A model generated the notes under the pieces. The model was not told the origin of the DNA. It made no database searches and worked only from the letters and a program-made list of their open reading frames with translations. From contig NC_092562.1 of assembly GCF_037975245.1 (NCBI RefSeq), positions 29,651,554-29,715,553 of the forward strand: DNA of 64,000 nt. The letters are read 5' to 3'. This document shows, piece after piece, positions 16,168 to 40,410 of the stretch. Position 1 is the stretch's first letter. Each line of letters begins with the position of its first letter. The stretch is from Apostichopus japonicus (taxonomy: Eukaryota; Echinodermata; Holothuroidea; Aspidochirotida; Stichopodidae). Both the position numbers and the translations under genes were made by a program.

Positions 16168-16175
16168 ATCTACGT
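16168..16175. other. 8-bp target duplication (left), ATCTACGT
   Basis: ATCTACGT lies directly before the element end CACGGTTTCCCAAAC at 16176. It recurs directly after GGTTTGGGAACCACTG-type sequence at 40403-40410. An 8-bp duplication is the signature of hAT-superfamily transposition. Confidence 0.92.
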
Positions 16176-16199
16176 CACGGTTTCCCAAACCTGGGGTCG

Positions 16200-17089
16200 C
16201 GACCCCAACTGGGGTCGCGAAGCAATTCTTGTGGGGTCGCAGGCTTGTTTCAAAATATATTAAAAAATCTGAGGGTACCCAAAATTTACCCGAATTTGAA
16301 CGTTCGCAGTCAAAATCCTACAAAATTCACCCTGAAAACTCATATTTAGGGTTTTATTAGCGGCCGTTCTAGCGTTTTCCCTGAGTGAATCTGGCGTTTT
16401 TTGCTCAATTGTCGCTGGCCACCCTGCTTCTGTATATTCACTATATTGTTTTCACACCTGTTTGAACGTAGCAGCCACTAAGAGCAGCCACTAACAGCAG
16501 CCAATAGTGTATACATCAACGTTACACGCCGTTGGCCACTGATGTTTGTACACTGTGACGAGCGCTGGGTACGCTGTGGCGGGAAAGTTGATCCCCAGCA
16601 GCCACTAAGGGCAGCCTAAATTAGCGGACAATAACAAGACTGCTACTTTTTCGTACCTGTTTTAAAGCGATAATAATTAACGCTATGAATACTGTAAAAT
16701 GCCAATAATTGCACCATATAAGAGATGAGTTGTTGCTCTTTCATGTAATATAATTTTGGAATTTAATGGTGGACGAAATCTGCATCCATATTGAACTGAA
16801 ACTTGTGATCCTACCAAATCTTGTGGAGAAAGTCGTAAATGGCGGCAATTTTTATACCATTTTTTTTTCTTTTTTTTTCAAATGTCTAAACAATTAATTT
16901 ATGAGAATATGCAACAGTCAAGAGGGGTACAATGACGATTTTAAGTTATTCCTCTTACAAGTGGTATGAAAAAAACAGCCAGTAACACTTTGATTTATTG
17001 AAATTCGATGGCTACAAACCGTTCGATCCTAACAGGAGTGGGATGCAAATGGGAAAATTAGCTCGAAACGCGCGGTAATGTGTTATGAT
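16200..17089. other. Left subterminal region of the hAT-like element
   Basis: This unique to low-copy sequence lies between the terminal repeat and the satellite arm. It contains GGGGTCGC repeats in the first 70 bases, the AGCAGCCACTAA block shared in inverse with the right end, and a stretch (TTCTAGCGTTTT then TGTCGCTGG near 16,366-16,414) that occurs in direct orientation at about 40,105-40,132. From about 16,830 the sequence begins to resemble very diverged satellite monomers. It is non-coding. Confidence 0.7.
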
Positions 17090-19705
17090 CCAAACGTATT
17101 ATTATTTCAAAATCGGTTAATTTGAGTTATCGACCTAGTTAGGAGGTCCGGTTAGCATCAAATCAAAGAAAACAATTTCTTCTTTCACGTGTAATACCTA
17201 CTATCGCTAACAAAGCCGATTTTTTTGACCAAAAGTGGCCTAAACGTTTTAAAATATTGATATTTTTTTTTTCTTCTTCAAAATCAATTAATTTTAGTTA
17301 TGGAGCATACTGGCATGTCTGGTTAGCACCACATTAAAGTAGAAAGGTTCATCTTTCACGTGGTATACCTCTACTATCGGTAACAAAAATGATTTCTTGA
17401 CCAAAAGTGGCCTTAAAGTTTTAACCCCGATACGGACATCTCTAAACGCGCTGTATATACGGTAGGTGTAATGATCCAAAAAATGATTGTTTTTTTCAAA
17501 AATCGATTAACTTTAGTTATGGAGCCTACTAGGATGTCCGAATAGGACCACATTAAAGTAGAAAGGTTCCTCTTTCACGTGGTATACCTCTACTATCGGT
17601 AACAAAAATGATTTCTTGACCAAAAATGGCCTTAAAGTTTTAACCCCCATACGGACATCTCTAAACGCGCTGTATGTACGTAGTGTGTAATGATAAGAAA
17701 AATGGTTAATTTTTATTTTTTCAAAATCGATTAACTTTAGTTATGGAGCCTACTAGGATGTCCGGTTAGCACCACATTAAAGTAGAAAGGTTCCTTTTTT
17801 ACGTGGTATACCTCTACTATCGGTAACAAAACTGATTTCTTGACCAAAAGTGACCTTGAAGTTTTAACCCCGATACAGACCCTTCTCTAAACGCGCTGTA
17901 TATACGTAATGTGTAATGATCAGATAAATTTATAATTTTTATTTTTTTCAAAATCGATTAACTTTAGTTATGGAGCCTACTGGCATGTCCGGTTAGCATC
18001 ACATTAAAGTAGACAGGTTCATCTTTCACGTGGTATACCTCTACTATCGGTAACAAAAATGATTTCTTGACCAAAAATGGCCTTAAAGTTTTATCCCCGA
18101 TACGGACATCTCTAAACGCGCTGTATATACGTAATGTGTAATGATCAGATAAATTTATAATTTTTATTTTTTTCAAAATCGATTAACTTTAGTTATGGAG
18201 CCTACTGGCATGTCCGGTTAGCATCACATTAAAGTAGACAGGTTCATCTTTCACGTGGTATACCTCTACTATCGGTAACAAAACTGATTTCTTGACCAAA
18301 AGTGGCCTTAAAGTTTTAACCCCGATACGGACATCTCTAAACGCGCTGTATATACGGTATGTGTAATGATCAGATAAATTTATAATTTTTATTTTTTCAA
18401 AATCGATTAACTTTAGTTATGGAGCCTACTGGCATGTCCGGTTAGCACCACATTAAAGTAGACAGGTTCATCTTTCACGTGGTATACCTCTACTATCGGT
18501 AACAAAACTGATTTCTTGACCAAAAATGGCCTTAAAGTTTTATCCCCGATACGGACATCTCTAAACGCGCTGTATATACGGTATGTGTAATGATCAGATA
18601 AATTTATAATTTTTATTTTTGTCAAAATCGATTAACTTTAGTTATGGAGCCTACTGGCATGTCCGGTTAGCACCACATTAAAGTAGACAGGTTCATCTTT
18701 CACGTGGTATACCTCTACTATCGGTAACAAAAATGATTTCTTGACCAAAAATAGCCTTAAAGTTTTAACCCCGATACGGACATCTCTAAACGCGCTGTAT
18801 ATACGTAGTGTGTAATGATCAGAAAAATTTATAATTTTTATTTTTTCAAAATCGATTAACTTTAGTTATGGAGCCTACTGGCATGTCCGGTTAGCACCAC
18901 ATTAAAGTAGACAGGTTCATCTTTCACGTGATATACCTCTACTATCGGTAACAAAAATGATTTCTTGACCAAAAATAGCCTTAAAGTTTTAACCCCGATA
19001 CGGACATCTCTAAACGCGCTGTATATACGTAGTGTGTAATGATCAGAAAAATGGTTAATTTTTATTTTTTCAAAATCGATTAACTTTAGTTATGGAGCCT
19101 ACTGGCATGTCCGGTTAGCACCACATTAAAGTAGACAGGTTCATCTTTCACGTGGTATACCTCTACTATCGGTAACAAAACTGATTTCTTGACCAAAAAT
19201 GGCCTTAAAGTTTTAACCCCGATACGGACATCTCTAAACGCGCTGTATATACGGTATGTGTAATGATCAGATAAATTTATAATTTTTATTTTTTTCAAAA
19301 TCGATTAACTTTAGTTATGGAGCCTACTGGCATGTCCGGTTAGCATCACATGAAAGTAGACAGGTTCATCTTTCACGTGATATACCTCTACTATCGGTAA
19401 CAAAAATGATTTCTTGACCAAAAATGGCCTTAAAATTTTAACCCCGATACGGACATCTCTAAACGCGCTGTATATACGTAATGTGTAATGATCAGAAAAA
19501 TGGTTAATTTTTTATTTTTTCAAAATCGATTAACTTTAGTTATGGAGCCTACTGGCATGTCCGGTTAGCACCACATTAAAGTGAACAGGTTCATCTTTCA
19601 CGTGGTATACCTCTACTATCGGTAACAAAAATGATTTCTTGACCAAAAATGGCCTTAAATTTTAACCCCGATACAGACCCCTAACAAAACTGATTTCTTG
19701 ATTAG
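17090..19705 (-). repeat. Left satellite arm: 226-bp monomers, minus orientation
   Basis: About eleven to twelve head-to-tail monomers of about 226 bp are present. Landmarks recur each period: ATCGATTAACTTTAGTTATGG, then CACGTGGTATACCTCTACTAT, then CTCTAAACGCGCTGTATATAC. The outermost monomers at 17,090-17,500 are clearly diverged, while those from about 17,950 inward are nearly identical. Because 226 is not a multiple of 3, the recurring 70-residue frames on the minus strand end within each monomer and are not genes. The orientation is opposite to the right arm. Confidence 0.95.
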
Positions 19706-20219
19706 ATTTAATTATGATTCAATTTTGTCCTTCTTGTCGGAACAAACTGAATATTTGTGCTCCATAGCTACTGTTTGTATCAAATCTACTTCTGTGCTCC
19801 ACCTGTACCGAAATATCAGACTATATAGACAAAATATGTAATCAAATAAAATTGATAACTTTTCGTCGTACTGTATTTTCTTTCAAAAGAAGTTAGTCAT
19901 TTACCTTTTTGAGGCATGACAAGAAATTCTTCACATCGTACCATAAGACCACATATAACCAACATGAAGTCTGTGTGGAATACATTGTACATTTAACACA
20001 CGATCGGATACTTTTGTTAACTAGTACGAATCATCCTGCAGTATGATCTTGAGGTTCTAAAGAATGACTGACGATATTAATCTCTCTTCTCATTACCTCT
20101 TTGTAAAAGTATAATTTGTAATATTATCACAACAATAAAACGTCTTATAAGTTAAACAGACTCTCTATGAGACATGACAAACCCTATATTCACACTTAGT
20201 TACATCCAGTAGCATATCA
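19706..20219. other. Unique spacer DNA inside the hAT-like element
   Basis: No clear gene is visible. The stretch directly left of the MITE at 20228 is continuous with 21231 onward once the MITE and one duplication copy are removed. The joined sequence forms part of a possible transposase remnant (see 21231-21600). Confidence 0.45.
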
Positions 20220-20227
20220 AATACAAG

Positions 20228-21230
20228 CACTGGCGGATCCAGGGCCTCTGTTTGGGAGGAGCCAAAGTGGCATTAGAGTGATATGGGGGAGGGGTCTAAG
20301 GGGATGGGGTGCCCCCCTCCCCCTTTGGAAAATTTTCTATTGCTGAATGCCCTCAGATGCAATTTGGTGCGACAAAAGTGTACAATGGTGATGTTAATTT
20401 ACTTCTAAAAAAAATGTTTCCCAGGTGTAATTTTCTAAAATATTTATGAAACAAAGTTGGGATCATCTTTCTCAAGAAATTTTATTTCTCATAGGTTATA
20501 AATTTCTTACAACCAGCCTGTAACTGCAAAATGGTGTTAAACTGTAAATCCTCATGCTCATACATTTACATAGCTCCCAACTCTTGAGAAGGCAAATGCT
20601 GGTCCATGCCACGAATCGCCGTCCTGGGGGAGGGGTATAAGGGGAGGGGGTGTCCCCCTCCCCTATTGAATTTTTTTTTAATCCTGGTGATGCCTACATG
20701 TAAAATGGTGGCACTTAGAAAGGCTTTTGTCACCCAAAATTTTCTGAGAAATATGCATTTTTTTTTGTGTAACATCAATAAATTGAATAGTAGGTGATAA
20801 TTCATTCTTTCCCGTGGCATGAAAATGTTCGCTGCTCGCCCCAATTCAAAGGTTCAATGATGCTGTAAAGGAGGTTTTATATTCTATTATGCTAAATGAT
20901 AAAGAAATGATGGTTGCTAAGTCAAAATTCGATGCAAATTTTTTTATGTATACTTGACAATTACAATGCGGTTTTTTCGGACGCTTGTGCGGGTCAGTGG
21001 GTTTGGGTGTTAGACTGCGGGTCTAATTCCCGCGAATCGCGGGTCAGTTGGGAGCTCTGCATTTAATTTTAAACCAGAAAACAAAAAGGTTTAGACTAGT
21101 CTACCACTGCTATTCCTCTCGATTTTTTAAATTTCCAATCATACGATTTAGCGGATGTTCGGAAACACTTTTTTGCTCACCTTTGGGGGGGGGGGCATGG
21201 CCCCCTTGGCCCCCCTTGGATCCGCCAGTG
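20228..21230. mobile_element. 1.0-kb hAT-type non-autonomous element in the spacer
   Basis: It starts CACTGGCGGATCCAGGG and ends TTGGATCCGCCAGTG, with a perfect 8-bp duplication AATACAAG on both sides (20220-20227 and 21231-21238). Two internal blocks (about 20,260-20,345 and 20,620-20,690), both of the type GGGGGAGGGGTMTAAGGGG followed by a C-rich run, show an internal duplication. Its open frames are chance frames. Confidence 0.93.
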
Positions 21231-21600
21231 AATACAAGAACAAATGTATGATCCCAATCTATTTTACTCTCCAGTACTTATGAAAGAATTGGAGACTGTT
21301 TTATTACCGTCATCTGCTTTTTGGTCTGGGTTACTTCTCGGTGACTTGAACCGACATATTAATATAGATGTAGATATAAGTAGTATTACCAGAAACGTTC
21401 GTAAAGTTTCGGTACCACGACACAATTGGTCATGCTGAATCGAGAATGAAAGTTCTTAAATCTAATCAGCTGAGTGATCGCAACATGAAAAGAATTGATG
21501 AATTACTTTCTGTTTATTACCAAGACTTGATTGGAATACAGAGACGATACAGTGATCAGATGATCAGATCATACAAAACTAAGTGAAAACATAACACAAA
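21231..21600 (+). pseudogene. Possible transposase-like remnant in the spacer
   Basis: A frame at 21244-21438 contains SAFWSGLLLGDLNRH. A following stretch in another frame (about 21,430-21,590) contains GHAESRMKVLK and RIDELLSVYYQDL. These look like conserved protein sequence rather than random translation. They resemble, from memory, poorly characterised transposon-derived proteins with WSGLLLGDL-type motifs. The frame is broken and short, and the MITE split its 5' side. The assignment is tentative; a fragment of a captured host gene is the main alternative. Confidence 0.35.
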
Positions 21601-21777
21601 GACAGTCGAAGAGTACGGAGAGCCAAACGTTCCATAAATGTCGAAAAAGGAAGTGGAGTGTCCAAGTTAATATATATGTCCAATTCGATATCAACATGTT
21701 ACAATTCCATATGAACATATCGAGACAAAATACCAATATGTCATTACGTCTATCAACATGTCAAATTCAACATATAT

Positions 21778-23190
21778 ATACGTTATGTGTAATGATCCAA
21801 AAAATGATTAATTCCTGTGTGGGCAATTGGGCCTTTGAGGTTGCTGCATGGGCCCCGTTACAGTTAGAAATGAAGTCGTTGGTATTTTAAGATACCGCAA
21901 TGTCCAATAGGGCCAACACCTCTAAAAGAATTATCCTGATTTTGTTAACATAATCAAATCATGTGTGGGCCATGGGCACTTTATGGCTGTTGCCTGGGGC
22001 CCGGTACAGATAAAAGTCGTAGATGGTATTTTTTGGTTTCTCCAATGTATAAAGGGTCCAATGCAACTATAGAATAATCCTTGTGTCTTTGCACATGATC
22101 AAATCACGCGTGGGCCATGGGCCCTTGAGGTTGTCTGGGCCATGGTAGAGGATAAATTTGCAGTAAATCGACCTGTGACGTCATTATGATGGCTCGCATC
22201 TTGCAGTGATGTGAGCCTAGTTTATTGCATTGCACTGCACTTGGCCCGCGTTTACTTTCAACCCAGTCTGCATCGATTCGATACTCAACTGGACCGGGAA
22301 CCCAGAAGATTTGAAAAGAGACAGAGGGTTTAATGGGCAGCTTATGTCCGTTTATGACCAGGATTCAAGGTTATGTGTTGCTGCCGTGCCACACAATGTG
22401 CGTGTATGTAGTCTAAATGTGCCTTCAATTAAAATAGGGGGCTCAAATGTTGATTTAATCATGTGAAAGACCAAGGCAAAAGCGCTGGATAAAACTCAAA
22501 GTAAGATACTTTTAGAACCATAGCAATGACAGTAATTGTACCTTGTGACGGGCCCTGCAGAAGGGCCCATCAAAATGGTATTAATCATGCGAAAAGAGAA
22601 AAGGATAATTCATTTTGCGGTACACCAGTTAAACATTGGGGTGTCCCAAAATACTAATTACAGCAACTTTATGATGTACATGGGCCCATGCAGGCAGCAA
22701 CCAAAAAAGGCCTGTGGCCCACATATGATTCATTTATGTGAAATGAGAGCAGGGTGATTCTTAAAGTGGCATTGGACCCTTTGGAAATTGGGGTATCCAA
22801 AAATACTAATAACAACAACTTTATGATGTACCAGGACCCATACAGCAGCCAGAAAGGGCCCGTGGCCCACACATGATTTAATCATGTGAAAAGAGAGCAG
22901 TATGATTTCTTTTTATTGGCGCTGGACCATAAGGTTGTCGGGTATTAAAAAAAGAAAAACCTATGACTACAAATTTATCCTCTACCATCGCCTCAAGGGC
23001 CCATGGCCCACACGTGATTTGATTATGTTAACAAAAAGCAGGATAATTCGTTTAGAGGTGTTGGCCCTATTGGACATTGCGGTATCCAAAAATACCAACG
23101 ACTTCATATTTTAACTGTAACGGGACCCATGCAGCAACCTCAAAGGCCCAATTGCCCACACAGGAATTAATCATTTTTTGGATCATTACA
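21778..23190. repeat. Central palindrome of diverged tandem units joining the two satellite arms
   Basis: The left half (about 21,778-22,160) and right half (about 22,540-23,190) are inverted copies. Examples are TGGGCAATTGGGCCTTTGAGG at the left against its complement near 23,135, and GATACCGCAATGTCCAATAGG against its complement near 23,070. Each half consists of several diverged units of about 130-160 bp built on GGCCCACACATGATT. Each half begins with satellite sequence (ACGTTATGTGTAATGATCC at 21,780, its complement at 23,180). The asymmetric centre at about 22,160-22,540 has no recognised gene. Confidence 0.8.
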
Positions 23191-25887
23191 CATAACGTAT
23201 ATACAGCGCGTTTAGAGATGTCCGTACCAGGGTTAAAACTTTAAGGCCACTTTTGGTCAAGAAATCATTTTGTTACCGATAGTAGAGGTATACCACGTGA
23301 AAGAGGAACCTTTCTACTTTAATGTGGTGCTAACCGGACATCCTAGTAGGCTCCATAACTAAAGTAAATCGATTTTGAAAAAAAAAAGAAATTCTGATAA
23401 TTACACATAACGTATATACAGCGCGTTTAGAGAAGGGTCTGTATCGGGGTTAAAACTTTAAGGTCACTTTTGGTCAAGAAATCATTTTTGTTACCGATAG
23501 TAGAGGTATACCACGTGAAAGAGGAACCTTTCCACTTTAATTTGGTCCTATTCGGACATCCTAGTAGGCTCCATAACTAAAGTTAAACGATTTTGAAGAA
23601 AAAAAAAGAAATTCTGATCATTACACATAACGTATATACAGCGCGTTTAGAGATGTCCGTATCGGGGTTAAAACTTTGAGGCCACTTTTGGTCAAGAAAT
23701 CATTTTTGTTACCGATAGTAGATGTATACCACGTGAAAGATGAACCTGTCTACTTTAATGTGGTGCTAACCAGACATGCCAGTAGGCTCCATAACTAAAG
23801 TTAATCGATTTTGAAGGGGAAAAAAATTTGGGATCATTACACACTACGTATATTCAGCGCGTTTAGAGATGTCCGTATCGGGGTTAAAACTTTAAGGCCA
23901 TTTTTGGTCAAGAAATCATTTTTGTTACCGATAGTAGAGGTATACCACGTGTAAGATGAACCTGTCTACTTTAATGTGATGCTAACCGGACATGCCAGTA
24001 GGCTCCATAACTAAAGTTAATCGATTTTGACAAAAATAAAAATTATAAATTTATCTGATCATTACACATACCGTATATACAGCGCGTTTAGAGATGTCCG
24101 TATCGGGGTTAAAACTTTAAGGCCATTTTTGGTCAAGAAATCATTTTTGTTACCGATAGTAGAGGTATACCACGTAAAAGAGGAACCTTTCTACTTTAAT
24201 GTGGTGCTAACCGGACATCCTAGTAGGCTCCATAACTAAAGTAAATCGATTTTGAAAAAAATAAAAATCATAAATTTTTCTGATCATTACACATTACGTA
24301 TATACAGCGCGTTTAGAGATGTCCGTATCGGGGTTAAAACTTCAAGGTCACTTTTGGTCAAGAAATCATTTTTGTTACCGATAGTAGAGGTATACCACGT
24401 AGAAGAGGAACCTTTCTACTTTAATGTGGTGCTAACCGGACATCCTAGTAGGCTCCATAACTAAAGTTAATCGATTTTGAAAAAAATTAAAAATTAACAT
24501 TTTTCTGATCATTACACATAACGTATATACAGCGCGTTTAGAGAAGGATCTGTATCGGGGTTAAAACTTCAAGGTCACTTTTGGTCAAGAAATCATTTTT
24601 GTTACCGATAATAGAGGTATACCACGTAAAAGAGGAACCTTTCTACTTTAATGTGGTGATAACCGGACATCCTAGTAGGCTCCATAACTAAAGTTAATCG
24701 ATTTTGAAAAAAATAAAAATTAACCATTTTTCTGATAATTACACATTTGGTTTATATACAGCGCGTTTAGAGATGTCCGGATCGGGGTTAAAACTTTAAG
24801 GTCACTTTTGGTCAAGAAATCATTTTTGTTACCGATAGTAGAGGTATACCACGTGAAAGATGAACCTGTCTACTTTAAGGTGGTGCTAACCGGACATCCT
24901 AGTAGGCTCCATAACTAAAGTTAATCGATTTTGAAAAAAATAAAAATTAACCATTTTTCTGATCATTACACATTACGTATATACAGCGCGTTTAGAGATG
25001 TCCGGATCGGGGTTAAAACTTTAAGGTCACTTTTGGTCAAGAAATCATTTTTGTTACCGATAGTAGAGGTATACCACGTGAAAGAGGAACCTTTCTACTT
25101 TAATGTGGTGCTAACCGGACATGCCAGTAGGCTCCATAACTAAAGTTAATCGATTTTGAAAAAAATAAAATGTAACCATTTTTCTGATCATTACACACAA
25201 CGTATATACAGCGCGTTTAGAGAAGGGTCTGTAACGGGGTTAAAACTTCAAGGTCACTTTTGGTCAAGAAATCATTTTTGTTACCGATAGTAGAGGTATA
25301 CTACGTAAAAGAGGAACCTTTCTACTTTAATGTGGTGATAACCGGACATCCTAGTAGGCTCCATAACTAAAGTAAATCGATTTTGAAAAAAAAATAAAAA
25401 TTAACCATTTTTCTGATCATTACACATTACGTATATACAGTGCGTTTAGAGATGTCCGGATCGGGGTTAAAACTTCAAGGTCACTTTTGGTCAAGAAATC
25501 ATTTTTGTTACCGATAGTAGAGGTATACCACGTCAAAGAGGAACCTTTCTACTTTAATGTGGTGCTAGCCGGACATCCTAGTAGGCTCCATAACTCAAGT
25601 AAATCGATTTTCAAAAAAAATAAAAATTAACCATTTTTCTGATCATTACACATTACGTATATACAGCGCGTTTAGAGAAGGGTCTGTAACGGGGTTAAAA
25701 GTTCAAGGTCACTTTTGGTCAAGAAATCATTTTTGTTACCGATAGTAGAGGTATACCACGGGAAAGAGGAACCTTTCTACTTTAATGTGGTGCTAACCGG
25801 ACATCCTAGTAGGCTCCATAACTAAAGTAAATCGATTTTGAAACAAATGAAAATCATAAATTTTTCTTATCATTACACATAACGTAT
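23176..25887 (+). repeat. Right satellite arm, first segment: 226-bp monomers, plus orientation
   Basis: About twelve monomers of about 226 bp are present, the same family as the left arm but in reverse orientation. Landmarks are GTATATACAGCGCGTTTAGAG, ATAGTAGAGGTATACCACGT and CCATAACTAAAGTTAATCGAT. Two alternating subtypes are visible: one reads GAGATGTCCG after the TTTA landmark, the other GAGAAGGGTCTGTA. The array is cut within a monomer at GTAT (25884-25887) by the LTR retrotransposon and resumes at 31714. Confidence 0.95.
25884..25887. other. 4-bp target duplication GTAT of the LTR retrotransposon (left)
   Basis: GTAT precedes the 5' LTR and GTAT (31714-31717) follows the 3' LTR. Removing the element and one copy restores the regular satellite sequence ACGTATATACAGCG. 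Confidence 0.95.
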
Positions 25888-27108
25888 TGTAACGACACGT
25901 CAAAGCTCATTGTTTGTCGTTAGCGTTAACAAGTATTTTCTCCAATCAAATGTTTTACCTTGGGTTGATTCTTTTACATTTTTAGACGCTTTACAGAAAT
26001 TGTTTGTTAGATAAAATCTTATAAGGGGGTGTCACTTGCTTGATTTATGAACAACTGTTAAGGGGGAACTCTCTCTTGTTGACCGACTTTGGAGGTCACT
26101 GAGTAGGACGTCTAGTTTACGTTCCGGGGGGCCAAAAATGTTAGGTCTGGGTAAATCTTAACCAGCACGCATGTCGTATTTAATTGTGTTTTATTGGTTG
26201 ATGGTTGTAGACTGGGCGTGGTTTATGTTTCTAATAGGTTTAAGTGTAGGTTCACACGTTATAGGTATAGGAAGTAGTTTCTGTTTAAAAGCAACTGCGG
26301 GCTCGGACCAGGGGGGTGAGGAGGATTCCATGCTCGGACGAGGGGCGGTTCCCGGCTCGGAATAGGAGGGGTAGAACGAATGTGACCATGAGTTAGGAGA
26401 CGAACGAGTCATCTATTGGCAAAAACAGTGGTGGAACAGCCCAGGAAGTCGGATCGGACGACAAGTAAAATAACCCAGAAGACCAGGTTCAACACTTCGG
26501 TTCATCTGCGCCGCAGTTCACCAATCCGCCAACTGCGCCGCCAATCACCAATCCGCCAACTGCGCCGCTGATCACCAATCCGCCAACTGCGCCGCTGATC
26601 ACCAATCCGCCAACTGCGCCGCCGATCACCAATCCGCCAACTGCGCCGCCGATCACCAATTCGCCAACTGCGCCGCCAATCACCAATCCGCCAACTGCGC
26701 CGCTGATCACCAATCCGCCAACTGCGCCGCCAATCACCAATCCGCCAACTGCGCCGCCGTTCACCATTCCGCCAACTGCGCCGCAGTTCATCAATCCGCC
26801 AACTGCGCCGCCGTTCACCATAGCCCAATCTTCAGCGCCGAAGTCTATCGTTCTGCCCTCCGTGTCGAGACCCGCCATTAGTAATGTACTGTGTTGTATT
26901 TAACTTCATCGACTTCTAAGCATGTGTTAAAACCTGGTTTCGTATTTAATAATTGCCTCTGTAATGCACGACCACTGTGCACCATCTTGACATGTATATA
27001 GATCGTAAATAAACGGGTAAACTTTAATATCTCCTGTCGACAGCCTCATTCCTGTGTTCCCGCATTTCCACTCTTCCTTGCGCTCACCACCGAGGACGGC
27101 GCGTTACA
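25888..27108 (+). repeat. 5' LTR
   Basis: It is 1,221 bp, TG...CA bounded with the inverted ends TGTAACG/CGTTACA. A TATA-like TTATAAGG lies at about 26,018 and an AATAAA signal near 27,006-27,011. A 27-bp minisatellite occupies about 26,510-26,822. It is identical to the 3' LTR except for the substitution noted at 26661. Confidence 0.95.
26510..26822. repeat. 27-bp minisatellite inside the 5' LTR (about 12 units)
   Basis: The units are of the type ATCACCAATCCGCCAACTG followed by CGCCGCC. Because 27 bp is nine codons, all frames stay open: the minus strand reads repeated GAVGGLVIG, the plus strand ITNPPTAPP. The same array is in the 3' LTR at about 31,115-31,427. Coding use is not supported. 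Confidence 0.92.
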
Positions 27109-27109
27109 T

Positions 27110-27129
27110 TGGTGGCAGCGGTGGGATTC
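27110..27129 (+). other. Primer binding site, tRNA-Leu type
   Basis: TGGTGGCAGCGGTGGGATTC starts two bases after the 5' LTR. It is complementary over 20 bases to the 3' end (acceptor with CCA, into the T stem) of a common animal leucine tRNA, as I recall that tRNA. This would prime minus-strand DNA synthesis. Confidence 0.85.
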
Positions 27130-27161
27130 CAGTGCGTTCGTTTTGGTTAGAGCGAAGGAAG

Positions 27162-27514: not shown

Positions 27515-27545
27515 GCGGAGTCCGACCTTTCCGCAAGGGGAGCCC

Positions 27546-28547: not shown

Positions 28548-28604
28548 AAAAAGTTGTACTGGTCCGGAAGAAGCAGATTTTTCATTCCCTAGAAGAACTC
28601 AAAT

Positions 28605-29925: not shown

Positions 29926-30492
29926 GAGACTACGGAGAACGTCGCCGCGAGAGACGCGCCGCGAGACAGTGCGCCGCAAGTCAGATTCCGCCAAAGCGAC
30001 GAAGCTTCGTTCGGACCTTGTTTTTATTTCTGTTGGACGATTTTACATGTACTTGCTGATTTTGTTCTATGTATTATGATTGCCTTTGGAAACCACACGT
30101 TACCGTATATGATTTGCAAGACGGGAGTGAACTTCATTCCAACGTTGGTGCTTTTGTTACGTGATTTGAACATTAAGCTTCATTATATACGCATGTTGTA
30201 AATATTTTTCCAACTTTATACTGGACACTTTGATTTTTCATTGTGTTTGTTATACTGGACACTTTGATTTTTCCTTGTGTTTGTTATACTGGACACATTG
30301 ATTTTTCCTTATGTTTGTTTAGTTGAGAGAACATCTGTTATAGAATGGACGCTTCATATTATTCATACTTACTACTCTTTTCCAAGTTGCTAAGTACTGC
30401 GATCGAACGGTATGTGTTTACTATGTTTCATTATTTTCTTTTAAAAGAGCTAAGTTAAATGCGGGACGCATTTCATTCTCGGGTGGGAAAGA
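29926..30492. other. 3' non-coding region and polypurine tract of the LTR retrotransposon
   Basis: This is AT-rich DNA after the zinc-finger stop codon. It contains three direct copies of TTATACTGGACACTTTGATTTTT or a close variant (about 30,214-30,310). It ends in the polypurine tract GGGTGGGAAAGA directly before the 3' LTR. Confidence 0.75.
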
Positions 30493-31713
30493 TGTAACGA
30501 CACGTCAAAGCTCATTGTTTGTCGTTAGCGTTAACAAGTATTTTCTCCAATCAAATGTTTTACCTTGGGTTGATTCTTTTACATTTTTAGACGCTTTACA
30601 GAAATTGTTTGTTAGATAAAATCTTATAAGGGGGTGTCACTTGCTTGATTTATGAACAACTGTTAAGGGGGAACTCTCTCTTGTTGACCGACTTTGGAGG
30701 TCACTGAGTAGGACGTCTAGTTTACGTTCCGGGGGGCCAAAAATGTTAGGTCTGGGTAAATCTTAACCAGCACGCATGTCGTATTTAATTGTGTTTTATT
30801 GGTTGATGGTTGTAGACTGGGCGTGGTTTATGTTTCTAATAGGTTTAAGTGTAGGTTCACACGTTATAGGTATAGGAAGTAGTTTCTGTTTAAAAGCAAC
30901 TGCGGGCTCGGACCAGGGGGGTGAGGAGGATTCCATGCTCGGACGAGGGGCGGTTCCCGGCTCGGAATAGGAGGGGTAGAACGAATGTGACCATGAGTTA
31001 GGAGACGAACGAGTCATCTATTGGCAAAAACAGTGGTGGAACAGCCCAGGAAGTCGGATCGGACGACAAGTAAAATAACCCAGAAGACCAGGTTCAACAC
31101 TTCGGTTCATCTGCGCCGCAGTTCACCAATCCGCCAACTGCGCCGCCAATCACCAATCCGCCAACTGCGCCGCTGATCACCAATCCGCCAACTGCGCCGC
31201 TGATCACCAATCCGCCAACTGCGCCGCCGATCACCAATCCGCCAACTGCGCCGCCGATCACCAATCCGCCAACTGCGCCGCCAATCACCAATCCGCCAAC
31301 TGCGCCGCTGATCACCAATCCGCCAACTGCGCCGCCAATCACCAATCCGCCAACTGCGCCGCCGTTCACCATTCCGCCAACTGCGCCGCAGTTCATCAAT
31401 CCGCCAACTGCGCCGCCGTTCACCATAGCCCAATCTTCAGCGCCGAAGTCTATCGTTCTGCCCTCCGTGTCGAGACCCGCCATTAGTAATGTACTGTGTT
31501 GTATTTAACTTCATCGACTTCTAAGCATGTGTTAAAACCTGGTTTCGTATTTAATAATTGCCTCTGTAATGCACGACCACTGTGCACCATCTTGACATGT
31601 ATATAGATCGTAAATAAACGGGTAAACTTTAATATCTCCTGTCGACAGCCTCATTCCTGTGTTCCCGCATTTCCACTCTTCCTTGCGCTCACCACCGAGG
31701 ACGGCGCGTTACA
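30493..31713 (+). repeat. 3' LTR
   Basis: This is the same length and sequence as the 5' LTR, with C at 31266 where the 5' LTR has T. It is followed by the GTAT duplication and the resumed satellite monomer. Confidence 0.95.
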
Positions 31714-34700
31714 GTATATACAGCGCGTTTAGAGATGTCCGGATCGGGGTTAAAACTTCAAGGTCACTTTTGGTCAAGAAATCATTTTTGTTACCGATAG
31801 TAGAGGCATACCACGTAAAAGAGGAACCTTTCTACTTTAAGGTGGTGATAACCGGACATCCTAATAGGCTCCATAACTAAAGTAAATCGATTTTGAAAAA
31901 AATAAAAATTAACCATTTTTCTGATCATTACACATTACGTATATACAGCGCGTTTAGAGATGTCCGGATCGGGGTTAAAACTTTAAGGTCACTTTTGGTC
32001 AAGAAATCATTTTTGTTACCGATAGTAGAGGTATACCACGTGAAAGAGGAAGCTTTCTACTTTAATGTGGTGCTAACCGGACATGCCAGTAGGCTCCATA
32101 ACTAAAGTTAATCGATTTTGAAAAAAATAAAATGTAACCATTTTTCTGATCATTACACACAACGTATATACAGCGCGTTTAGAGAAGGGTCTGTAACGGG
32201 GTTAAAACTTCAAGGTCACTTTTGGTCAAGAAATCATTTTTGTTACCGATAGTAGAGGTATACCACGTGAAAGAGGAACCTTTCTACTTTAATGTGGTGC
32301 TAACCGGACATGCCAGTAGGCTCCATAACTAAAGTTAATCGATTTTGAAAAAAATAAAAATTAACCATTTTTCTGATCATTACACATTTGGTTTATATAC
32401 AGCGCGTTTAGAGATGTCCGGATCGGGGTTAAAACTTCAAGGTCACTTTTGGTCAAGAAATCATTTTTGTTACCGATAATAGAGGTATACCACGTGAAAG
32501 AGGAACCTTTGTACTTTAATGTGGTGCTAACCGGACATGCCAGTAGGCTCCATAACTAAAGTTAATCGATTTTGAAAAAAATAAAATTTAACCATTTTTC
32601 TGATCATTACACACAACGTATATACAGCGCGTTTAGAGAAGGGTCTGTAACGGGGTTAAAATTTCAAGGTCACCTTTGGTCAAGAAATCATTTTTGTTAC
32701 CGATAGTAGAGGTATACCACGTGAAAGAGGAACCTTTCTACTTTAATGTGGTGCTAACCGGACATCCTAGTAGGCTCCATAACTCAAGTAAATCGATTTT
32801 GAAAAAAAATAAAAATTAACCATTTTTCTGATCATTACACATTACGTATATACAGCGCGTTTAGAGAAGGGTCTGTAACGGGGTTAAAACTTCAAGGTCA
32901 CTTTTGGTCAAGAAATCATTTTTGTCACCGATAGTAGAGGTATACCACGGGAAAGAGGAACCTTTCTACTTTAATGTGGTGCTAACCGGACATCCTAGTA
33001 GGCTCCATAACTAAAGTAAATCGATTTTGAAAAAAATAAAAATCATAAATTTTTCTTATCATTACACATAACGTATATACAGCGCGTTTAGAGATGTCCG
33101 GATCGGGGTTAAAACTTCAAGGTCACTTTTGGTCAAGAAATCATTTTTGTTACCGATAGTAGAGGCATACCACGTAAAAGAGGAACCTTTCTACTTTAAG
33201 GTGGTGCTAACCGGACATCCTAGTAGGCTCCATAACTAAAGTTAATCGATTTTGACAAAAATAAAAATTAACCATTTTTCTGATCATTACACATTACGAA
33301 TATACGGCGCGTTTGGAGATGTCCGTATCGGGATTAAAACTTTAAGGTCACTTTTGGTCAAGAAATCATTTTTGTTACCGATAGTAGAGGTATACCACGT
33401 AAAAGAGGAAGCTTTCTACTTTAATGTGGTGCTATCCGGACATCCTAGTAGGCTCCATAACTCAAGTAAATCGATTTTGAAAAAAATAAAAATTAACCTT
33501 TTTTCTGATCATTACACATTACATATATACAGCGCGTTTAGAGAAGGGTCTGTATCGGGGTTAAAACTTCAAGGTCACTTTTGGTCAAGAAATCATTTTT
33601 GTTACCGATAGTAGAGGTATACCACGGGAAAGAGGAACCTTTCTACTTTAATGTGGTGTTAACCGGACATCCTAGTAGGCTCCATAACTAAAGTAAATCG
33701 ATTTTGAAAAAAATAAAAATCATAAATTTTTCTGATCATTACACATAACGTATATACAGCGCGTTTAGAGAAGGGTCTGTATCGGGGTTAAAACTTCAAG
33801 GTCACTTTTGGTCAAGAAATCATTTTTGTTACCGATAGTAGAGGTATACCACGGGAAAGAGGAACCTTTCTACTTTAATGTGGTGATAACCGGACATCCT
33901 AATAGGCTCCATAACTAAAGTAAATCGATTTTGAAAAAAATAAAAATTAACCATTTTTCTGATCATTACACATTACGTATATACAGCGCGTTTAGAGATG
34001 TCCGGATCGGGGTTAAAACTTTAAGGTCACTTTTGGTCAAGAAATCATTTTTGTTACCGATAGTAGAGGTATACCACGGGAAAGAGGAACCTTTCTACTT
34101 TAATGTGGTGCTAACCGGACATGCCAGTAGGCTCCATAACTAAAGTTAATCGATTTTGAAAAAAATAAAATTTAACCATTTTTCTGATCATTACACACAA
34201 CGTATATACAGCGCGTTTAGAGAAGGGTCTGTAACGGGGTTAAAACTTCAAGGTCACTTTTGGTCAAGAAATCATTTTTGTTACCGATAGTAGAGGTATA
34301 CCACGGGAAAGAGGAACCTTTCTACTTTAATGTGGTGATAACCGGACATCCTAATAGGCTCCATAACTAAAGTAAATCGATTTTGAAAAAAATAAAAATT
34401 AACCATTTTTCTGATCATTACACATTACGTATATACAGCGCGTTTAGAGATGTCCGGATCGGGGTTAAAACTTTAAGGTCACTTTTGGTCAAGAAATCAT
34501 TTTTGTTACCGATAGTAGAGGTATACCACGGGAAAGAGGAACCTTTCTACTTTAATGTGGTGCTAACCGGACATGCCAGTAGGCTCCATAACTAAAGTAA
34601 ATCGATTTTGAAAAAAATAAAATTCATAAATTTTTCTGATCATTACACATAACGTATATACAGCGCGTTTAGAGAAGGGTCTGTATCGGGGTTAAAACTT

Positions 34701-37700
34701 CAAGGTCACTTTTGGTCAAGAAATCATTTTTGTTACCGATAGTAGAGGTATACCACGGGAAAGAGGAACCTTTCTACTTTAATGTGGTGATAACCGGACA
34801 TCCTAATAGGCTCCATAACTAAAGTAAATCGATTTTGAAAAAAATAAAAATTAACCATTTTTCTGATCATTACACATTACGTATATACAGCGCGTTTAGA
34901 GATGTCCGGATCGGGGTTAAAAGTTTAAGGTCACTTTTGGTCAAGAAATCATTTTTGTTACCGATAGTAGAGGTATACCACGGGAAAGAGGAACCTTTCT
35001 ACTTTAATGTGGTGCTAACCGGACATGCCAGTAGGCTCCATAACTAAAGTTAATCGATTTTGAAAAAAATAAAATTTAACCATTTTTCTGATCATTACAC
35101 ACAACGTATATACAGCGCGTTTAGAGAAGGGTCTGTAACGGGGTTAAAACTTCAAGGTCACTTTTGGTCAAGAAATCATTTTTGTTACCGATAGTAGAGG
35201 TATACCACGTGAAAGAGGAACCTTTCTACTTTAATGTGGTGCTAACCGGACATGCCAGTAGGCTCCATAACTAAAGTTAATCGATTTTGAAAAAAATAAA
35301 AATTAACCATTTTTCTGATCATTACACATTTGGTTTATATACAGCGCGTTTAGAGATGTCCGGATCGGGGTTAAAACTTCAAGGTCACTTTTGGTCAAGA
35401 AATCATTTTTGTTACCGATAATAGAGGTATACCACGTGAAAGAGGAACCTTTGTACTTTAATGTGGTGCTAACCGGACATGCCAGTAGGCTCCATAACTA
35501 AAGTTAATCGATTTTGAAAAAAATAAAATTTAACCATTTTTCTGATCATTACACATTACGTATATACAGCGCGTTTAGAGAAGGGTCTGTAACGGGGTTA
35601 AAACTTCAAGGTCACCTTTGGTCAAGAAATCATTTTTGTTACCGATAGTAGAGGTATACCACGTGAAAGAGGAACCTTTCTACTTTAATGTGGTGCTAAC
35701 CGGACATGCCAGTAGGCTCCATAACTAAAGTTAATCGATTTTGAAAAAAATAAAAATTAACCATTTTTCTGATCATTACACATTTGGTTTATATACAGCG
35801 CGTTTAGAGATGTCCGGATCGGGGTTAAAACTTTAAGGTCACTTTTGGTCAAGAAATCATTTTTGTTACCGATATTAGAGGTATATCACGTGAAAGAGGA
35901 ACCTGTCTTTTTTAATGTGGTGCTAACCGGACATGCCAGTAGGCTCCATAACTAAAGTTAATCGATTTTGAAAAAAATAAAAATTAACCATTTTTCTGAT
36001 CATTACACACAACGTATATACAGCGCGTTTAGCGAAGGGTCTGTAACGGGGTTAAAACTTCAAGGTCACTTTTGGTCAAGAAATCATTTTTGTTACCGAT
36101 AGTAGAGGTATACCACGGGAAAGAGGAACCTTTCTACTTTAATGTGGTGCTAACCGGACATCCTAGTAGGCTCCATAACTAAAGTAAATCGATTTTGAAA
36201 AAAATAAAAATCATAAATTTTTCTTATCATTACACATAACGTATATACAGCGCGTTTAGAGATGTCCGGATCGGGGTTAAAACTTCAAGGTCACTTTTGG
36301 TCAAGAAATCATTTTTGTTACCGATAGTAGAGGCATACCACGTAAAAGAGGAACCTTTCTACTTTAAGGTGGTGCTAACCGGACATCCTAGTAGGCTCCA
36401 TAACTAAAGTTAATCGATTTTGACAAAAATAAAAATTAACCATTTTTCTGATCATTACACATTACGAATATACGGCGCGTTTGGAGATGTCCGTATCGGG
36501 ATTAAAACTTTAAGGTCACTTTTGGTCAAGAAATCATTTTTGTTACCGATAGTAGAGGTATACCACGTAAAAGAGGAAGCTTTCTACTTTAATGTGGTGC
36601 TATCCGGACATCCTAGTAGGCTCCATAACTCAAGTAAATCGATTTTGAAAAAAATAAAAATTAACCTTTTTTCTGATCATTACACATTACATATATACAG
36701 CGCGTTTAGAGAAGGGTCTGTATCGGGGTTAAAACTTCAAGGTCACTTTTGGTCAAGAAATCATTTTTGTTACCGATAGTAGAGGTATACCACGGGAAAG
36801 AGGAACCTTTCTACTTTAATGTGGTGTTAACCGGACATCCTAGTAGGCTCCATAACTAAAGTAAATCGATTTTGAAAAAAATAAAAATCATAAATTTTTC
36901 TGATCATTACACATAACGTATATACAGCGCGTTTAGAGAAGGGTCTGTATCGGGGTTAAAACTTCAAGGTCACTTTTGGTCAAGAAATCATTTTTGTTAC
37001 CGATAGTAGAGGTATACCACGGGAAAGAGGAACCTTTCTACTTTAATGTGGTGATAACCGGACATCCTAATAGGCTCCATAACTAAAGTAAATCGATTTT
37101 GAAAAAAATAAAAATTAACCATTTTTCTGATCATTACACATTACGTATATACAGCGCGTTTAGAGATGTCCGGATCGGGGTTAAAACTTTAAGGTCACTT
37201 TTGGTCAAGAAATCATTTTTGTTACCGATAGTAGAGGTATACCACGGGAAAGAGGAACCTTTCTACTTTAATGTGGTGCTAACCGGACATGCCAGTAGGC
37301 TCCATAACTAAAGTTAATCGATTTTGAAAAAAATAAAATTTAACCATTTTTCTGATCATTACACACAACGTATATACAGCGCGTTTAGAGAAGGGTCTGT
37401 AACGGGGTTAAAACTTCAAGGTCACTTTTGGTCAAGAAATCATTTTTGTTACCGATAGTAGAGGTATACCACGGGAAAGAGGAACCTTTCTACTTTAATG
37501 TGGTGATAACCGGACATCCTAATAGGCTCCATAACTAAAGTAAATCGATTTTGAAAAAAATAAAAATTAACCATTTTTCTGATCATTACACATTACGTAT
37601 ATACAGCGCGTTTAGAGATGTCCGGATCGGGGTTAAAACTTTAAGGTCACTTTTGGTCAAGAAATCATTTTTGTTACCGATAGTAGAGGTATACCACGGG

Positions 37701-40085
37701 AAAGAGGAACCTTTCTACTTTAATGTGGTGCTAACCGGACATGCCAGTAGGCTCCATAACTAAAGTAAATCGATTTTGAAAAAAATAAAATTCATAAATT
37801 TTTCTGATCATTACACATAACGTATATACAGCGCGTTTAGAGAAGGGTCTGTATCGGGGTTAAAACTTCAAGGTCACTTTTGGTCAAGAAATCATTTTTG
37901 TTACCGATAGTAGAGGTATACCACGGGAAAGAGGAACCTTTCTACTTTAATGTGGTGATAACCGGACATCCTAATAGGCTCCATAACTAAAGTAAATCGA
38001 TTTTGAAAAAAATAAAAATTAACCATTTTTCTGATCATTACACATTACGTATATACAGCGCGTTTAGAGATGTCCGGATCGGGGTTAAAACTTTAAGGTC
38101 ACTTTTGGTCAAGAAATCATTTTTGTTACCGATAGTAGAGGTATACCACGGGAAAGAGGAACCTTTCTACTTTAATGTGGTGCTAACCGGACATGCCAGT
38201 AGGCTCCATAACTAAAGTTAATCGATTTTGAAAAAAATAAAATTTAACCATTTTTCTGATCATTACACACAACGTATATACAGCGCGTTTAGAGAAGGGT
38301 CTGTAACGGGGTTAAAACTTCAAGGTCACTTTTGGTCAAGAAATCATTTTTGTTACCGATAGTAGAGGTATACCACGTGAAAGAGGAACCTTTCTACTTT
38401 AATGTGGTGCTAACCGGACATGCCAGTAGGCTCCATAACTAAAGTTAATCGATTTTGAAAAAAATAAAAATTAACCATTTTTCTGATCATTACACATTTG
38501 GTTTATATACAGCGCGTTTAGAGATGTCCGGATCGGGGTTAAAACTTCAAGGTCACTTTTGGTCAAGAAATCATTTTTGTTACCGATAATAGAGGTATAC
38601 CACGTGAAAGAGGAACCTTTGTACTTTAATGTGGTGCTAACCGGACATGCCAGTAGGCTCCATAACTAAAGTTAATCGATTTTGAAAAAAATAAAATTTA
38701 ACCATTTTTCTGATCATTACACATTACGTATATACAGCGCGTTTAGAGAAGGGTCTGTAACGGGGTTAAAACTTCAAGGTCACCTTTGGTCAAGAAATCA
38801 TTTTTGTTACCGATAGTAGAGGTATACCACGTGAAAGAGGAACCTTTCTACTTTAATGTGGTGCTAACCGGACATGCCAGTAGGCTCCATAACTAAAGTT
38901 AATCGATTTTGAAAAAAATAAAAATTAACCATTTTTCTGATCATTACACATTTGGTTTATATACAGCGCGTTTAGAGATGTCCGGATCGGGGTTAAAACT
39001 TTAAGGTCACTTTTGGTCAAGAAATCATTTTTGTTACCGATATTAGAGGTATATCACGTGAAAGAGGAACCTGTCTTTTTTAATGTGGTGCTAACCGGAC
39101 ATGCCAGTAGGCTCCATAACTAAAGTTAATCGATTTTGAAAAAAATAAAAATTAACCATTTTTCTGATCATTACACACAACGTATATACAGCGCGTTTAG
39201 CGAAGGGTCTGTAACGGGGTTAAAACTTCAAGGTCACTTTTGGTCAAGAAATCATTTTTGTTACCGATAGTAGAGGTATACCACGGGAAAGAGGAACCTT
39301 TCTACTTTAATGTGGTGCTAACCGGACATCCTAGTAGGCTCCATAACTAAAGTAAATCGATTTTGAAAAAAATAAAAATTAACCATTTTTCTGATCATTA
39401 CACATAACGTATATACAGCGCGTTTAGAGAAGGGTCTGTAACCGGGTTAAAACTTCAAGGTCACTTTTGGTCAAGAAATCATTTTTGTCACCGATAGTAG
39501 AGGTATACTACGTAAAAGAGGGACCTTTCTACTTCAATGTGGTGCTAACCGGACATCCTAGTAGGCTCCATAACTAAAGTAAATCGATTTTGAAAAAAAT
39601 AAAAATTCACCATTTTTCTGATCATTACACATAACGTATATACAGCGCGTTTAGAGAAGGGTCTGTCACGGGGTTAAAACTTCAAGGTCACTTTTGGTCA
39701 AGAAATCATTTTTGTTACCGATAGTAGAGGTATACTACGTAAAAGAGGGACCTTTCTACTTCAATGTGGTGCTAACCGGACATCCTAGTAGGCTCCATAA
39801 CTAAAGTTAATCGATTTTGAAAAAAACTCATTTTCTGATCATTACACATTAAGTATATACAGCGCGTTTAGAGATGTCCTTATCGGGGTTAAAACTTCAA
39901 GGTCACTTTTGGTCAAGAAATCACTTTTGTTACCGATAGTATAGGTAACCACGTAAAAGAGGAACCTTTCTACTTCAATGTGGTGCTAACCGGACATCCT
40001 AGTAGGCTCCATAACTAAAGTTAATCGATTTTGGAAAAAAACTCATTTTCTGATCATTACACATTAAGTATATACAGCGCGTTTG
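31714..40085 (+). repeat. Right satellite arm, second segment: about 37 monomers of 226 bp
   Basis: The array resumes mid-monomer at GTATATACAGCGCG and continues head to tail with the same landmarks as before. Monomer subtypes (GAGATGTCCG versus GAGAAGGGTCTGTA, and ACACATTTGGTTTATATAC variants) alternate, giving local 452-bp dimer repeats at 33,931, 34,383 and 34,835. The last three monomers, from about 39,370, are more diverged and shorter. The array ends at GCGCGTTTGGGGTTTTATT near 40,080. Confidence 0.95.
32927..39380 (+). repeat. Higher-order tandem duplication, period 3,168 bp (14 monomers)
   Basis: Diagnostic monomer variants recur at a fixed offset of 3,168 bp: frames at 33252, 33931, 34383 and 34835 reappear at 36420, 37099, 37551 and 38003. 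Identity is near perfect from about 32,927 in copy 1 and continues to about 39,380 in copy 2. I noticed one base difference, near 34,923 versus 38,091. Upstream of 32,927 the match drops to ordinary between-monomer similarity, so the breakpoint is visible. The cause is a recent unequal exchange or replication slippage event, or possibly an assembly artefact. Confidence 0.88.
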
Positions 40086-40402
40086 GGGTTTTATTTTCGC
40101 CAATCTAGCGTTTTTTCGTCAACTGTCGCTGGTAACACTGATTATAACAAACACACACGACCGCAGTTGTAGTACTGTGTGTCATGTCTTACTGTCCTTT
40201 TTTCCTTAGTGGCTGCTGTTAGTGTCTGCTCTTAGTGGCTGCTACCTTCCACCAGGCTGTTTTCACATACAACTACAGTACTGTACTACAGGTACATGTG
40301 GGCCTGCACAACTTCATTATTCCGTAGACACAAACTTGGGGTCGCGCTCGGATGGCGCTACATGAAATGGGGTCCCCGCCTTGAAAAGTTTGGGAACCAC
40401 TG
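40086..40402. other. Right subterminal region and end of the hAT-like element
   Basis: It contains TTAGTGGCTGCTGTTAGTG and CTCTTAGTGGCTGCTACC, the inverse of the AGCAGCCACTAA block of the left end. A GGGGTCGC/GGGGTCCCC-rich part follows, then the terminal AGTTTGGGAACCACTG. The duplication ATCTACGT follows at 40403-40410. It is non-coding. Confidence 0.85.
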
Positions 40403-40410
40403 ATCTACGT

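What the first reader, a model, noticed from the sequence alone, without database searches (positions are those of the whole stretch)
16176..40402. Foldback-like giant hAT element whose arms are inverted satellite arrays
The ends are Charlie-type hAT termini with a perfect 8-bp duplication (ATCTACGT). Nearly everything between them is one 226-bp satellite, minus-oriented on the left and plus-oriented on the right, around a partly palindromic spacer. Foldback elements with tandem-repeat arms are known (Drosophila FB and Tetris, Galileo of the P superfamily). A hAT-ended element with satellite arms of this size is, to my knowledge, not a standard description. It suggests a route by which a DNA transposon seeds satellite DNA at new sites.
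Basis: partly seen in the sequence, partly recalled or inferred. Interest (0 to 1): 0.93.

Follow-up and report, generated by a model that had tools for sequence, protein, structure and literature searches.

The report
Jumping element with satellite-DNA arms
A block whose two long arms are one short DNA repeat in opposite directions, with matching ends, was found at 28 places of this genome and is mostly flanked by exact 9-base duplications, so it likely spreads by jumping, probably with a Mutator-type enzyme made elsewhere, and likely carries its satellite DNA along.

Summary
The sequence observation holds in part; the hAT reading does not. The hAT-like ends (16176, 40402; duplication ATCTACGT) belong to a ~416-bp miniature element that is the insertion target. 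Inside it, at 16456-40257, lies a separate 23.8-kb element with its own ends (13-bp tandem repeats in short inverted repeats) and a 9-bp duplication, TGTTTTCAC. Two uninterrupted copies of the miniature element show the empty site. The inner element recurs genome-wide: both ends pair at 28 places (3.1-36.8 kb), and 27 of 32 copies read have a perfect 9-bp duplication (0 of 992 in swapped controls). All nine other longer copies examined have inverted arms of the same 227-bp satellite. Spacer orientation differs between copies (8 one way, 15 the other) and needs at least two flips on a tree of nine. Of 150 satellite matches listed, 145 lie inside such elements. Ends and duplication size resemble Mutator/Phantom foldback elements (Tm1; Tetris). 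No transposase with these ends was found. Verdict: a non-autonomous, likely Mutator-type foldback family with giant satellite arms; a new variant of a known kind. Whether it moved at full size or its arms grew after insertion is open. The organism is likely the sea cucumber Apostichopus japonicus (by assembly size).

The parts
16168..16175 (.). 8-bp duplication ATCTACGT of the outer hAT-like miniature element, left copy
   Evidence: the same 8 bp also occur at 16037 in a local repeat of the flank
16176..16455 (+). Left part of the outer hAT-like miniature element (the insertion target)
   Evidence: uninterrupted copies L067 (415 bp) and L068 (416 bp) elsewhere
16447..16455 (.). 9-bp target duplication TGTTTTCAC of the foldback element, left copy
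16456..17074 (+). Left end of the foldback element; starts ACCTGTTTGAACGT, then 13-bp tandem repeats AGCAGCCACTAA(G/C) at 16470-16502
17075..19689 (-). Left satellite arm, 12 monomers
19690..23161 (+). Spacer between the arms; occurs in both orientations in other copies
20228..21230 (+). Miniature element nested in the spacer (CACTGGCGGATCC ends, hAT-like by recall), 8-bp duplication AATACAAG
21775..23203 (+). Palindromic core of the spacer region; its outer arms run into satellite
23162..25887 (+). Right satellite arm, inner part, 12 monomers
25888..31713 (+). Later insertion: LTR retrotransposon (1,221-bp LTRs, 1 difference; 4-bp duplication GTAT)
31714..40084 (+). Right satellite arm, outer part, 37 monomers; 33080-36020 and 36248-39188 are a 14-monomer duplication
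40085..40257 (-). Right end of the foldback element; reverse strand starts GCCTGGTGGAAGGT, then 13-bp repeats (40205-40243)
40258..40266 (.). 9-bp target duplication TGTTTTCAC, right copy
40267..40402 (+). Right part of the outer hAT-like miniature element
40403..40410 (.). 8-bp duplication ATCTACGT of the outer miniature element, right copy

Best explanation
The 23.8-kb block at 16456-40257 is one copy of a dispersed element with short inverted ends, 9-bp target duplications and long inverted arms of a 227-bp satellite, inserted in a separate hAT-like miniature element, and it is likely moved in trans by a Mutator-type (Phantom-like) transposase. Shown: the ends, the duplications, the empty target, the many copies, arms of very different length, and the spacer in both orientations. 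Inferred: that a transposase recognises the end repeats and inserts the element; that unequal exchange within arms changes their length; that recombination between the two inverted arms turns the spacer round; and that the arms already held many different monomers when the young long copies spread.
For: Ends pair at 28 places, the window included, 3.1-36.8 kb, median 15.6 kb; the longest, on C3, is a tandem duplication, the next is 32.2 kb. Perfect 9-bp duplications in 27 of 32 copies read: 23 of 25 of the 28 paired places (three were not read) and 4 of 7 others; swapped control 0 of 992. Empty target: L067 and L068 are miniature elements with a single TGTTTTCAC. The end pattern GAASGTAGCAGCCACTAA (one mismatch allowed) occurs 185 times, reversed control 0. 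Spacer orientation: 8 as in the window, 15 inverted, of 23 copies (of 25 core rows at 98% or more, one C3 duplicate and C21:7.06M, whose ends are unknown, were dropped); a tree of nine spacers needs 3 changes, at least 2 forced by starred branches. Left ends of the long copies are 99.6% identical (11 rows) and core loops 99.5% (10 rows), yet random monomers are about 88% identical, gaps counted, both within and between elements, so the monomer diversity is likely older than the spread. Same-named arms of other elements are closer than opposite-named arms in 15 of 18 comparisons (C3 left out). Composite ends with asymmetric outermost bases, 13-15-bp tandem motifs and 9-bp duplications are described for Tm1 (PMC3169594). 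The genome has 38 MULE-domain matches; one of eight loci fetched (L080) encodes a 503-aa protein with a MULE domain and a FLYWCH match just under its cut-off, in a stretch with 17-bp tandem repeats and a 28-bp inverted repeat.
Against: No transposase gene was found between or near these ends: 8 of 38 MULE loci were fetched and none has this end motif, and by eye no listed end (100 of 185 places shown) lies within 50 kb of a MULE match. 5 of 32 copies read lack a perfect duplication (8, 7, 2, 1 and 0 of 9). Arrays are not colinear between copies beyond about two monomers from the left end, and C16b, whose right end equals the window's over 198 bases, differs in its array within 100-200 bp, so intact transfer of a long array was not shown. 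Other parts of the long copies are less alike than the left ends: right ends 97.9% (6 rows), outer spacer 98.9%, nested miniature element 98.8%.
Confidence: 0.76

Rival explanations
1. One reading: one giant hAT element bounded by the Charlie-type ends, with the satellite arms as its interior.
For: Perfect 8-bp duplication ATCTACGT directly outside the hAT ends.
Against: The miniature element exists without the insert (L067, L068); the satellite element exists at 27 other places with other flanks and mostly its own 9-bp duplications; only the window joins the two in the scored rows.
Confidence: 0.03
2. The element moved while short (few monomers per arm, as in the 0.7-2.4-kb members) and the long arms grew later in place by unequal exchange.
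For: Six members of 0.7-2.4 kb with few monomers were read, three with perfect 9-bp duplications. Arrays are scrambled between copies, so turnover is fast. The window holds a fresh 14-monomer duplication. A review states that DNA transposition efficiency falls over 6 kb of cargo (PMC6431247, passages seen).
Against: Long copies carry 9-24 monomer clusters at 97% (1-13 haplotype clusters in single 75-column windows), a diversity shared between elements although their left ends differ by under 1%; regrowth from one or two founders would give near-identical arrays. The 3.5-kb spacer with its nested element was already present. A lower bound of roughly 6-7 kb at the time of the spread follows, by inference; recombinant monomers weaken it.
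Confidence: 0.4
3. The family belongs to another superfamily with 8-9-bp duplications, for example Merlin (duplication size recalled).
For: No transposase with these ends was found; duplication length alone does not fix a superfamily.
Against: Composite asymmetric ends with 13-bp tandem motifs match the Tm1/Phantom description; the genome has a MULE protein with a sub-threshold FLYWCH match beside tandem repeats and an inverted repeat. Merlin was not searched.
Confidence: 0.14
4. The copies are segmental duplications or re-inserted satellite circles, not transposition products.
For: One copy, on C3, is tandemly duplicated; at C1:18638513/18638520 two elements lie six bases apart.
Against: Different flanks, fixed end points and exact 9-bp duplications in 27 of 32 copies read.
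Confidence: 0.03

Closest known systems
Tetris (foldback transposon of Drosophila virilis; PMC4079207, passages read)
   Same: Outer flanking domain, then a variable number of about 220-bp tandem repeats in inverted arms, then a middle domain; duplications of 8-10 bp; no autonomous copy found; authors suggest Mutator; arrays seed satellite DNA. Fibre hybridisation there shows long repeat arrays flanked by two outer domains, and assembled arrays reach 66 copies.
   Different: Tetris inverted repeats reach 1,735 bp, with three structurally complete copies; here one sequenced copy with both ends and a perfect duplication has an arm of 59 monomers (13 kb). Tetris authors suggest that large arrays may have disrupted transposition. 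Spacer flipping was not in the passages read.
Tm1 (Mutator/Foldback family of root-knot nematodes; PMC3169594: abstract, Results part 1 of 3, Discussion part 1 of 2 read)
   Same: 9-bp duplications; asymmetric outermost bases outside the inverted repeat; 13-15-bp tandem motif in the ends; miniature members. A purine-rich stretch follows the right-end repeats here as Motif D does there.
   Different: Tm1 has a member that encodes a FLYWCH-MULE transposase; none was found here. Satellite arms are not described in the parts read.
Galileo (P superfamily foldback; PMC3573991, passages read)
   Same: Long inverted repeats with internal tandem repeats of about 210 bp in one subfamily.
   Different: 7-bp duplications, P-type transposase, inverted repeats up to about 1.26 kb.
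Miniature elements that carry internal tandem arrays, such as Xstir of Xenopus (review PMC12628747, passages read)
   Same: Tandem arrays inside element ends, proposed as a source of satellite DNA.
   Different: The passages do not describe inverted arms around a spacer.
Drosophila FB (recalled; named in PMC3169594)
   Same: Inverted arms of tandem repeats.
   Different: Details of FB repeats and duplications are recalled, not tested here.

Membership tests
hAT (Charlie-type) | Element ends are hAT ends with 8-bp duplication | tested here: not met
   Met for the outer miniature element in the window only (8 of 8; L067 6 of 8, L068 3 of 8); the satellite element ends elsewhere with 9-bp duplications
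Foldback-like elements (structural class) | Long inverted arms built of tandem repeats around a middle part | tested here: met
   10 of 10 copies examined (window and nine) have a minus arm then a plus arm; one (C18) has no middle part
Mutator superfamily (MULE), Phantom group | 9-bp target duplication | tested here: met
   27 of 32 perfect
Mutator superfamily (MULE), Phantom group | Transposase of the MULE type encoded by a member with the same ends | tested here: inconclusive
   None found; 8 of 38 MULE loci inspected; 85 of 185 end places not listed
Tm1-like composite ends | Asymmetric outer bases, then 13-15-bp tandem motif | tested here: met
   ACCTGTTTGAACGT versus GCCTCATTGAAGGT in most copies read (GCCTGGTGGAAGGT in the window and C16b), then AGCAGCCACTAA repeats
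Satellite DNA | Tandem array of one monomer | tested here: met
   about 227-bp unit, 624 matches in the scored places
Recent mobility | Presence/absence polymorphism between individuals | not testable with these tools
   One assembly only

The most novel reading that the evidence does not exclude
A transposable satellite: a Mutator-type foldback element that moves as a unit of well over 10 kb, carrying dozens of satellite monomers to each new site and turning its centre round by recombination between the arms, so that the satellite of this genome lives almost only inside transposon ends. This would go beyond the 6-7-kb working limit quoted for such elements.
Probability: 0.42. Interest if true: 0.78.

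Novelty: new variant of a known kind. Interest (0 to 1): 0.62.

Why it matters
How satellite DNA gets to new chromosomal sites is an old question. Here one satellite is found, in the sample listed, almost only inside a mobile element, in copies with from one or two to 59 counted monomers per arm and mostly exact insertion duplications. That gives a series in which array growth, arm-to-arm inversion and spread can be measured in one genome, and it lets the suggestion that large arrays stop transposition (made for Tetris) be tested directly.

Tried and rejected
Giant hAT element: rejected. Autonomous partner: the 4.6-kb stretch with a member, L069, has no frame over 135 aa; eight MULE loci lack the ends. 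Comparing listed ends with MULE places by eye gave no neighbour within 50 kb, but only 100 of 185 ends were listed. A search with the exact right-end pattern, meant to list the rest, did not complete. A search with the outer miniature element alone did not complete. Colinear-array test of transfer at full size: negative or uninformative; a first all-against-all comparison gave almost no output and was replaced by pairwise runs. Satellite pattern in viral contigs: 0. A test for exchange between arms of one element was mixed: own opposite arm closer than other elements' opposite arms in 13 of 18, but closer than other elements' same-named arms in only 9 of 18. The nine longer copies were picked from the best matches to the window's left end, so their high identity is partly selected; an exception among the paired places is C8b, 32 kb with a 95% left end. 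The grouping of long copies apart from four small ones has 92/89 support, under the tool's star, with an unsettled bootstrap.
Full report
WHAT WAS CLAIMED AND WHAT IS THERE. The ends at 16176 and 40402 are hAT-like (label recalled) and carry a perfect 8-bp duplication, ATCTACGT. A 225-229-bp satellite lies minus-oriented on the left (17075-19689, 12 monomers) and plus-oriented on the right (23162-25887 and 31714-40084, 49 monomers), around a spacer with a 95% palindromic part. The satellite makes up 57% of the marked span. The rest is the ends, a 3.5-kb spacer with a nested miniature element (20228-21230, duplication AATACAAG), and a young LTR retrotransposon in the right arm (25888-31713, LTRs 1,221 bp with one difference, duplication GTAT).

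THE TRUE ENDS. The window lies in an assembly of 671.6 Mb. A search with 16176-17050 gave 41 matches, 40 candidates scored of 201. Of the 40 matches other than the window, 37 start at query position 273-289, that is at about 16456; two start at 192 and 213, and one is a 45-base piece. For one of those two (C16:3389506) the fetched flank shows the usual end, ACCTGTTTGAACGT. A search with 40060-40402 gave 43 matches, 40 scored of 365: one family matches up to about 198 and another, with 11 rows, from about 199 to 343; only the window has both. So two different repeats meet at 16455/16456 and 40257/40258. The inner one starts ACCTGTTTGAACGTAGCAGCCACTAAG and, on the other strand, GCCT..GAAGGTAGCAGCCACTAAG.

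INSERTION DUPLICATIONS. Directly outside these ends the window has TGTTTTCAC on both sides. I read both flanks of 32 copies: 27 have a perfect 9-bp duplication, the other five 8, 7, 2, 1 and 0 of 9. With left and right flanks of different copies paired, 0 of 992 are perfect. Two miniature elements from other chromosomes (L067, 415 bp; L068, 416 bp) are uninterrupted and hold TGTTTTCAC once. The miniature element is thus the target of the satellite element. Those two do not show a clean 8-bp duplication of their own (6 and 3 of 8).

THE FAMILY. The end pattern with one mismatch occurs 185 times, its reversed control 0. Both ends could be paired at 28 places, the window included: 3.1-36.8 kb, median 15.6 kb (made). 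The longest, C3, is a tandem duplication whose inner right end is truncated; the next is 32.2 kb. Nine other copies were fetched, five of them to the right end. All nine have the left end, a minus arm and a plus arm. Left arms hold 14-59 monomers; right arms were counted up to 30, four of them cut by the fetched stretch; C18 has no spacer. Six members of 0.7-2.4 kb have far fewer monomers. The left ends of the ten long copies are 99.6% identical and group apart from four small members (92/89, rough), with the selection bias named under Tried and rejected.

FLIPPING OF THE SPACER. Strands of the core (40 of 84 candidates scored) and of the left end show 8 copies with the window's orientation and 15 inverted, of 23. 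A tree of the nine spacers I held needs three changes of orientation; two are forced by starred branches, the window groups at 100/99 with three inverted copies, and the labels are not clustered (293 of 500 shuffles need as few changes). Recombination between the inverted arms is the simplest cause; this is inferred.

ARRAY TURNOVER. Monomers next to the left end match between copies at 97%, the next at 94%, later ones mostly near 90%, close to the background of 88%. C16b, identical to the window over 198 bases at the right end, differs in the array within 100-200 bp. Yet monomers within one element are as diverse (88.6% alike) as between elements (88.1%), and each element holds 9-24 clusters at 97%; recombinant monomers inflate this number, and 75-column windows give 1-13. 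Arms keep some identity: same-named arms of other elements are closer than opposite-named ones in 15 of 18 comparisons. I read this as inheritance of a diverse array with each copy, followed by quick reshuffling. It does not settle how long the element was when it moved.

SATELLITE OUTSIDE THE ELEMENT. A monomer search gave 624 matches (35 of 220 candidates scored), 150 listed. By my count of the list 145 lie inside paired elements, 21 of them in the window; five lie at C21:7064725-7066313, about 2.6 kb from a core copy whose ends were not among the scored rows. The scored places are those most like a window monomer, so older or distant arrays are not excluded.

CLASSIFICATION. 9-bp duplications, asymmetric outer bases and 13-bp tandem motifs in the ends match the description of Tm1, a Phantom-type Mutator/foldback family (PMC3169594: abstract, first part of Results and first part of Discussion read). 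Tetris has arms of about 220-bp repeats, duplications of 8-10 bp, no autonomous copy, long arrays between two outer domains on stretched fibres, and is placed with Mutator by its authors (PMC4079207, passages read). The genome has 38 matches to the MULE domain. One of eight loci fetched, L080, encodes a 503-aa MULE protein with a FLYWCH match of 21.2 bits against a cut-off of 23.6, with 17-bp tandem repeats at its left edge and a 28-bp inverted repeat, both cut by the ends of the stretch; its ends differ from those studied here. No transposase with these ends was found, so membership of Mutator is likely but not shown.

ORGANISM. Total length 671.58 Mb, 35 contigs and a longest contig seen of 46.04 Mb come close to the Apostichopus japonicus assembly of 671.6 Mb in 34 scaffolds with 23 chromosomes of 18.21-46.02 Mb, built from HiFi reads (PMC10344927, passages read). 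This is inferred from size. A search for that species with satellite DNA and transposable elements found 0 papers in the library.

NOVELTY. Searches (listings seen) gave Tm1, Tetris and Galileo as the nearest; in the titles, abstract starts and passages that I saw, none reports sequenced copies with satellite arms of this size, matched ends and a flipping centre. A review notes that Pack-MULEs of one study stay within 7 kb and that transposition efficiency drops over 6 kb, while naming 16-20-kb elements of another superfamily (PMC6431247, passages). I rate this a new variant of a known kind.

Noticed in passing
25888-31713: Young LTR retrotransposon in the right arm: LTRs differ at 1 of 1,221 bases; frames with a zinc knuckle, an aspartyl protease and zinc-finger matches; the other frames of 150 aa or more there were not searched.
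   Followed up: partly
16388-16429 and 40102-40143: The right end of the foldback element holds about 42 bp, in direct orientation, that resemble the left part of the miniature element.
   Followed up: partly
33080-36020 and 36248-39188: A 14-monomer block of the right arm is duplicated almost without difference, a very recent event.
   Followed up: partly
L080 (G000:C17:19937300-19943300): MULE transposase gene with a sub-threshold FLYWCH match, 17-bp tandem repeats on the side seen and a 28-bp inverted repeat: perhaps a second foldback-like Mutator family in the same genome. 13 of the 38 MULE matches lie on C17.
   Followed up: partly
L049-L052 and L045, L046, L059, L060: Copies C1b and C9b have the same duplication (TGACCCTAA / TTAGGGTCA) and similar flanks, as if inserted at one point of a repeat; C12c and C3b also share a flank.
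   Followed up: no
L075 (G000:C14:27136050-27137480): A member with left ends on both sides whose flanking DNA is also inverted, as if formed by a fold-back template switch.
   Followed up: no
L063 (G000:C1:18638280-18638640): Two members of the family lie six bases apart, right end to left end.
   Followed up: no
window 22140-22700; C7:26.81M, C10:11.23M, C14:12.16M, C12:8.03M, C22:20.25M: Copies of the spacer core at 88-96% lie at places without this element's ends in my lists; the core may come from another repeat.
   Followed up: no
5180-5654: Short 22-bp minisatellite (AATATATACACGTATTAATTCG) in the left flank, with an inverted pair at 5180-5254/5580-5654.
   Followed up: no
16037 and 16168: The 8 bp ATCTACGT occur twice in the left flank within a local repeat, so they are ordinary flank sequence.
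   Followed up: yes
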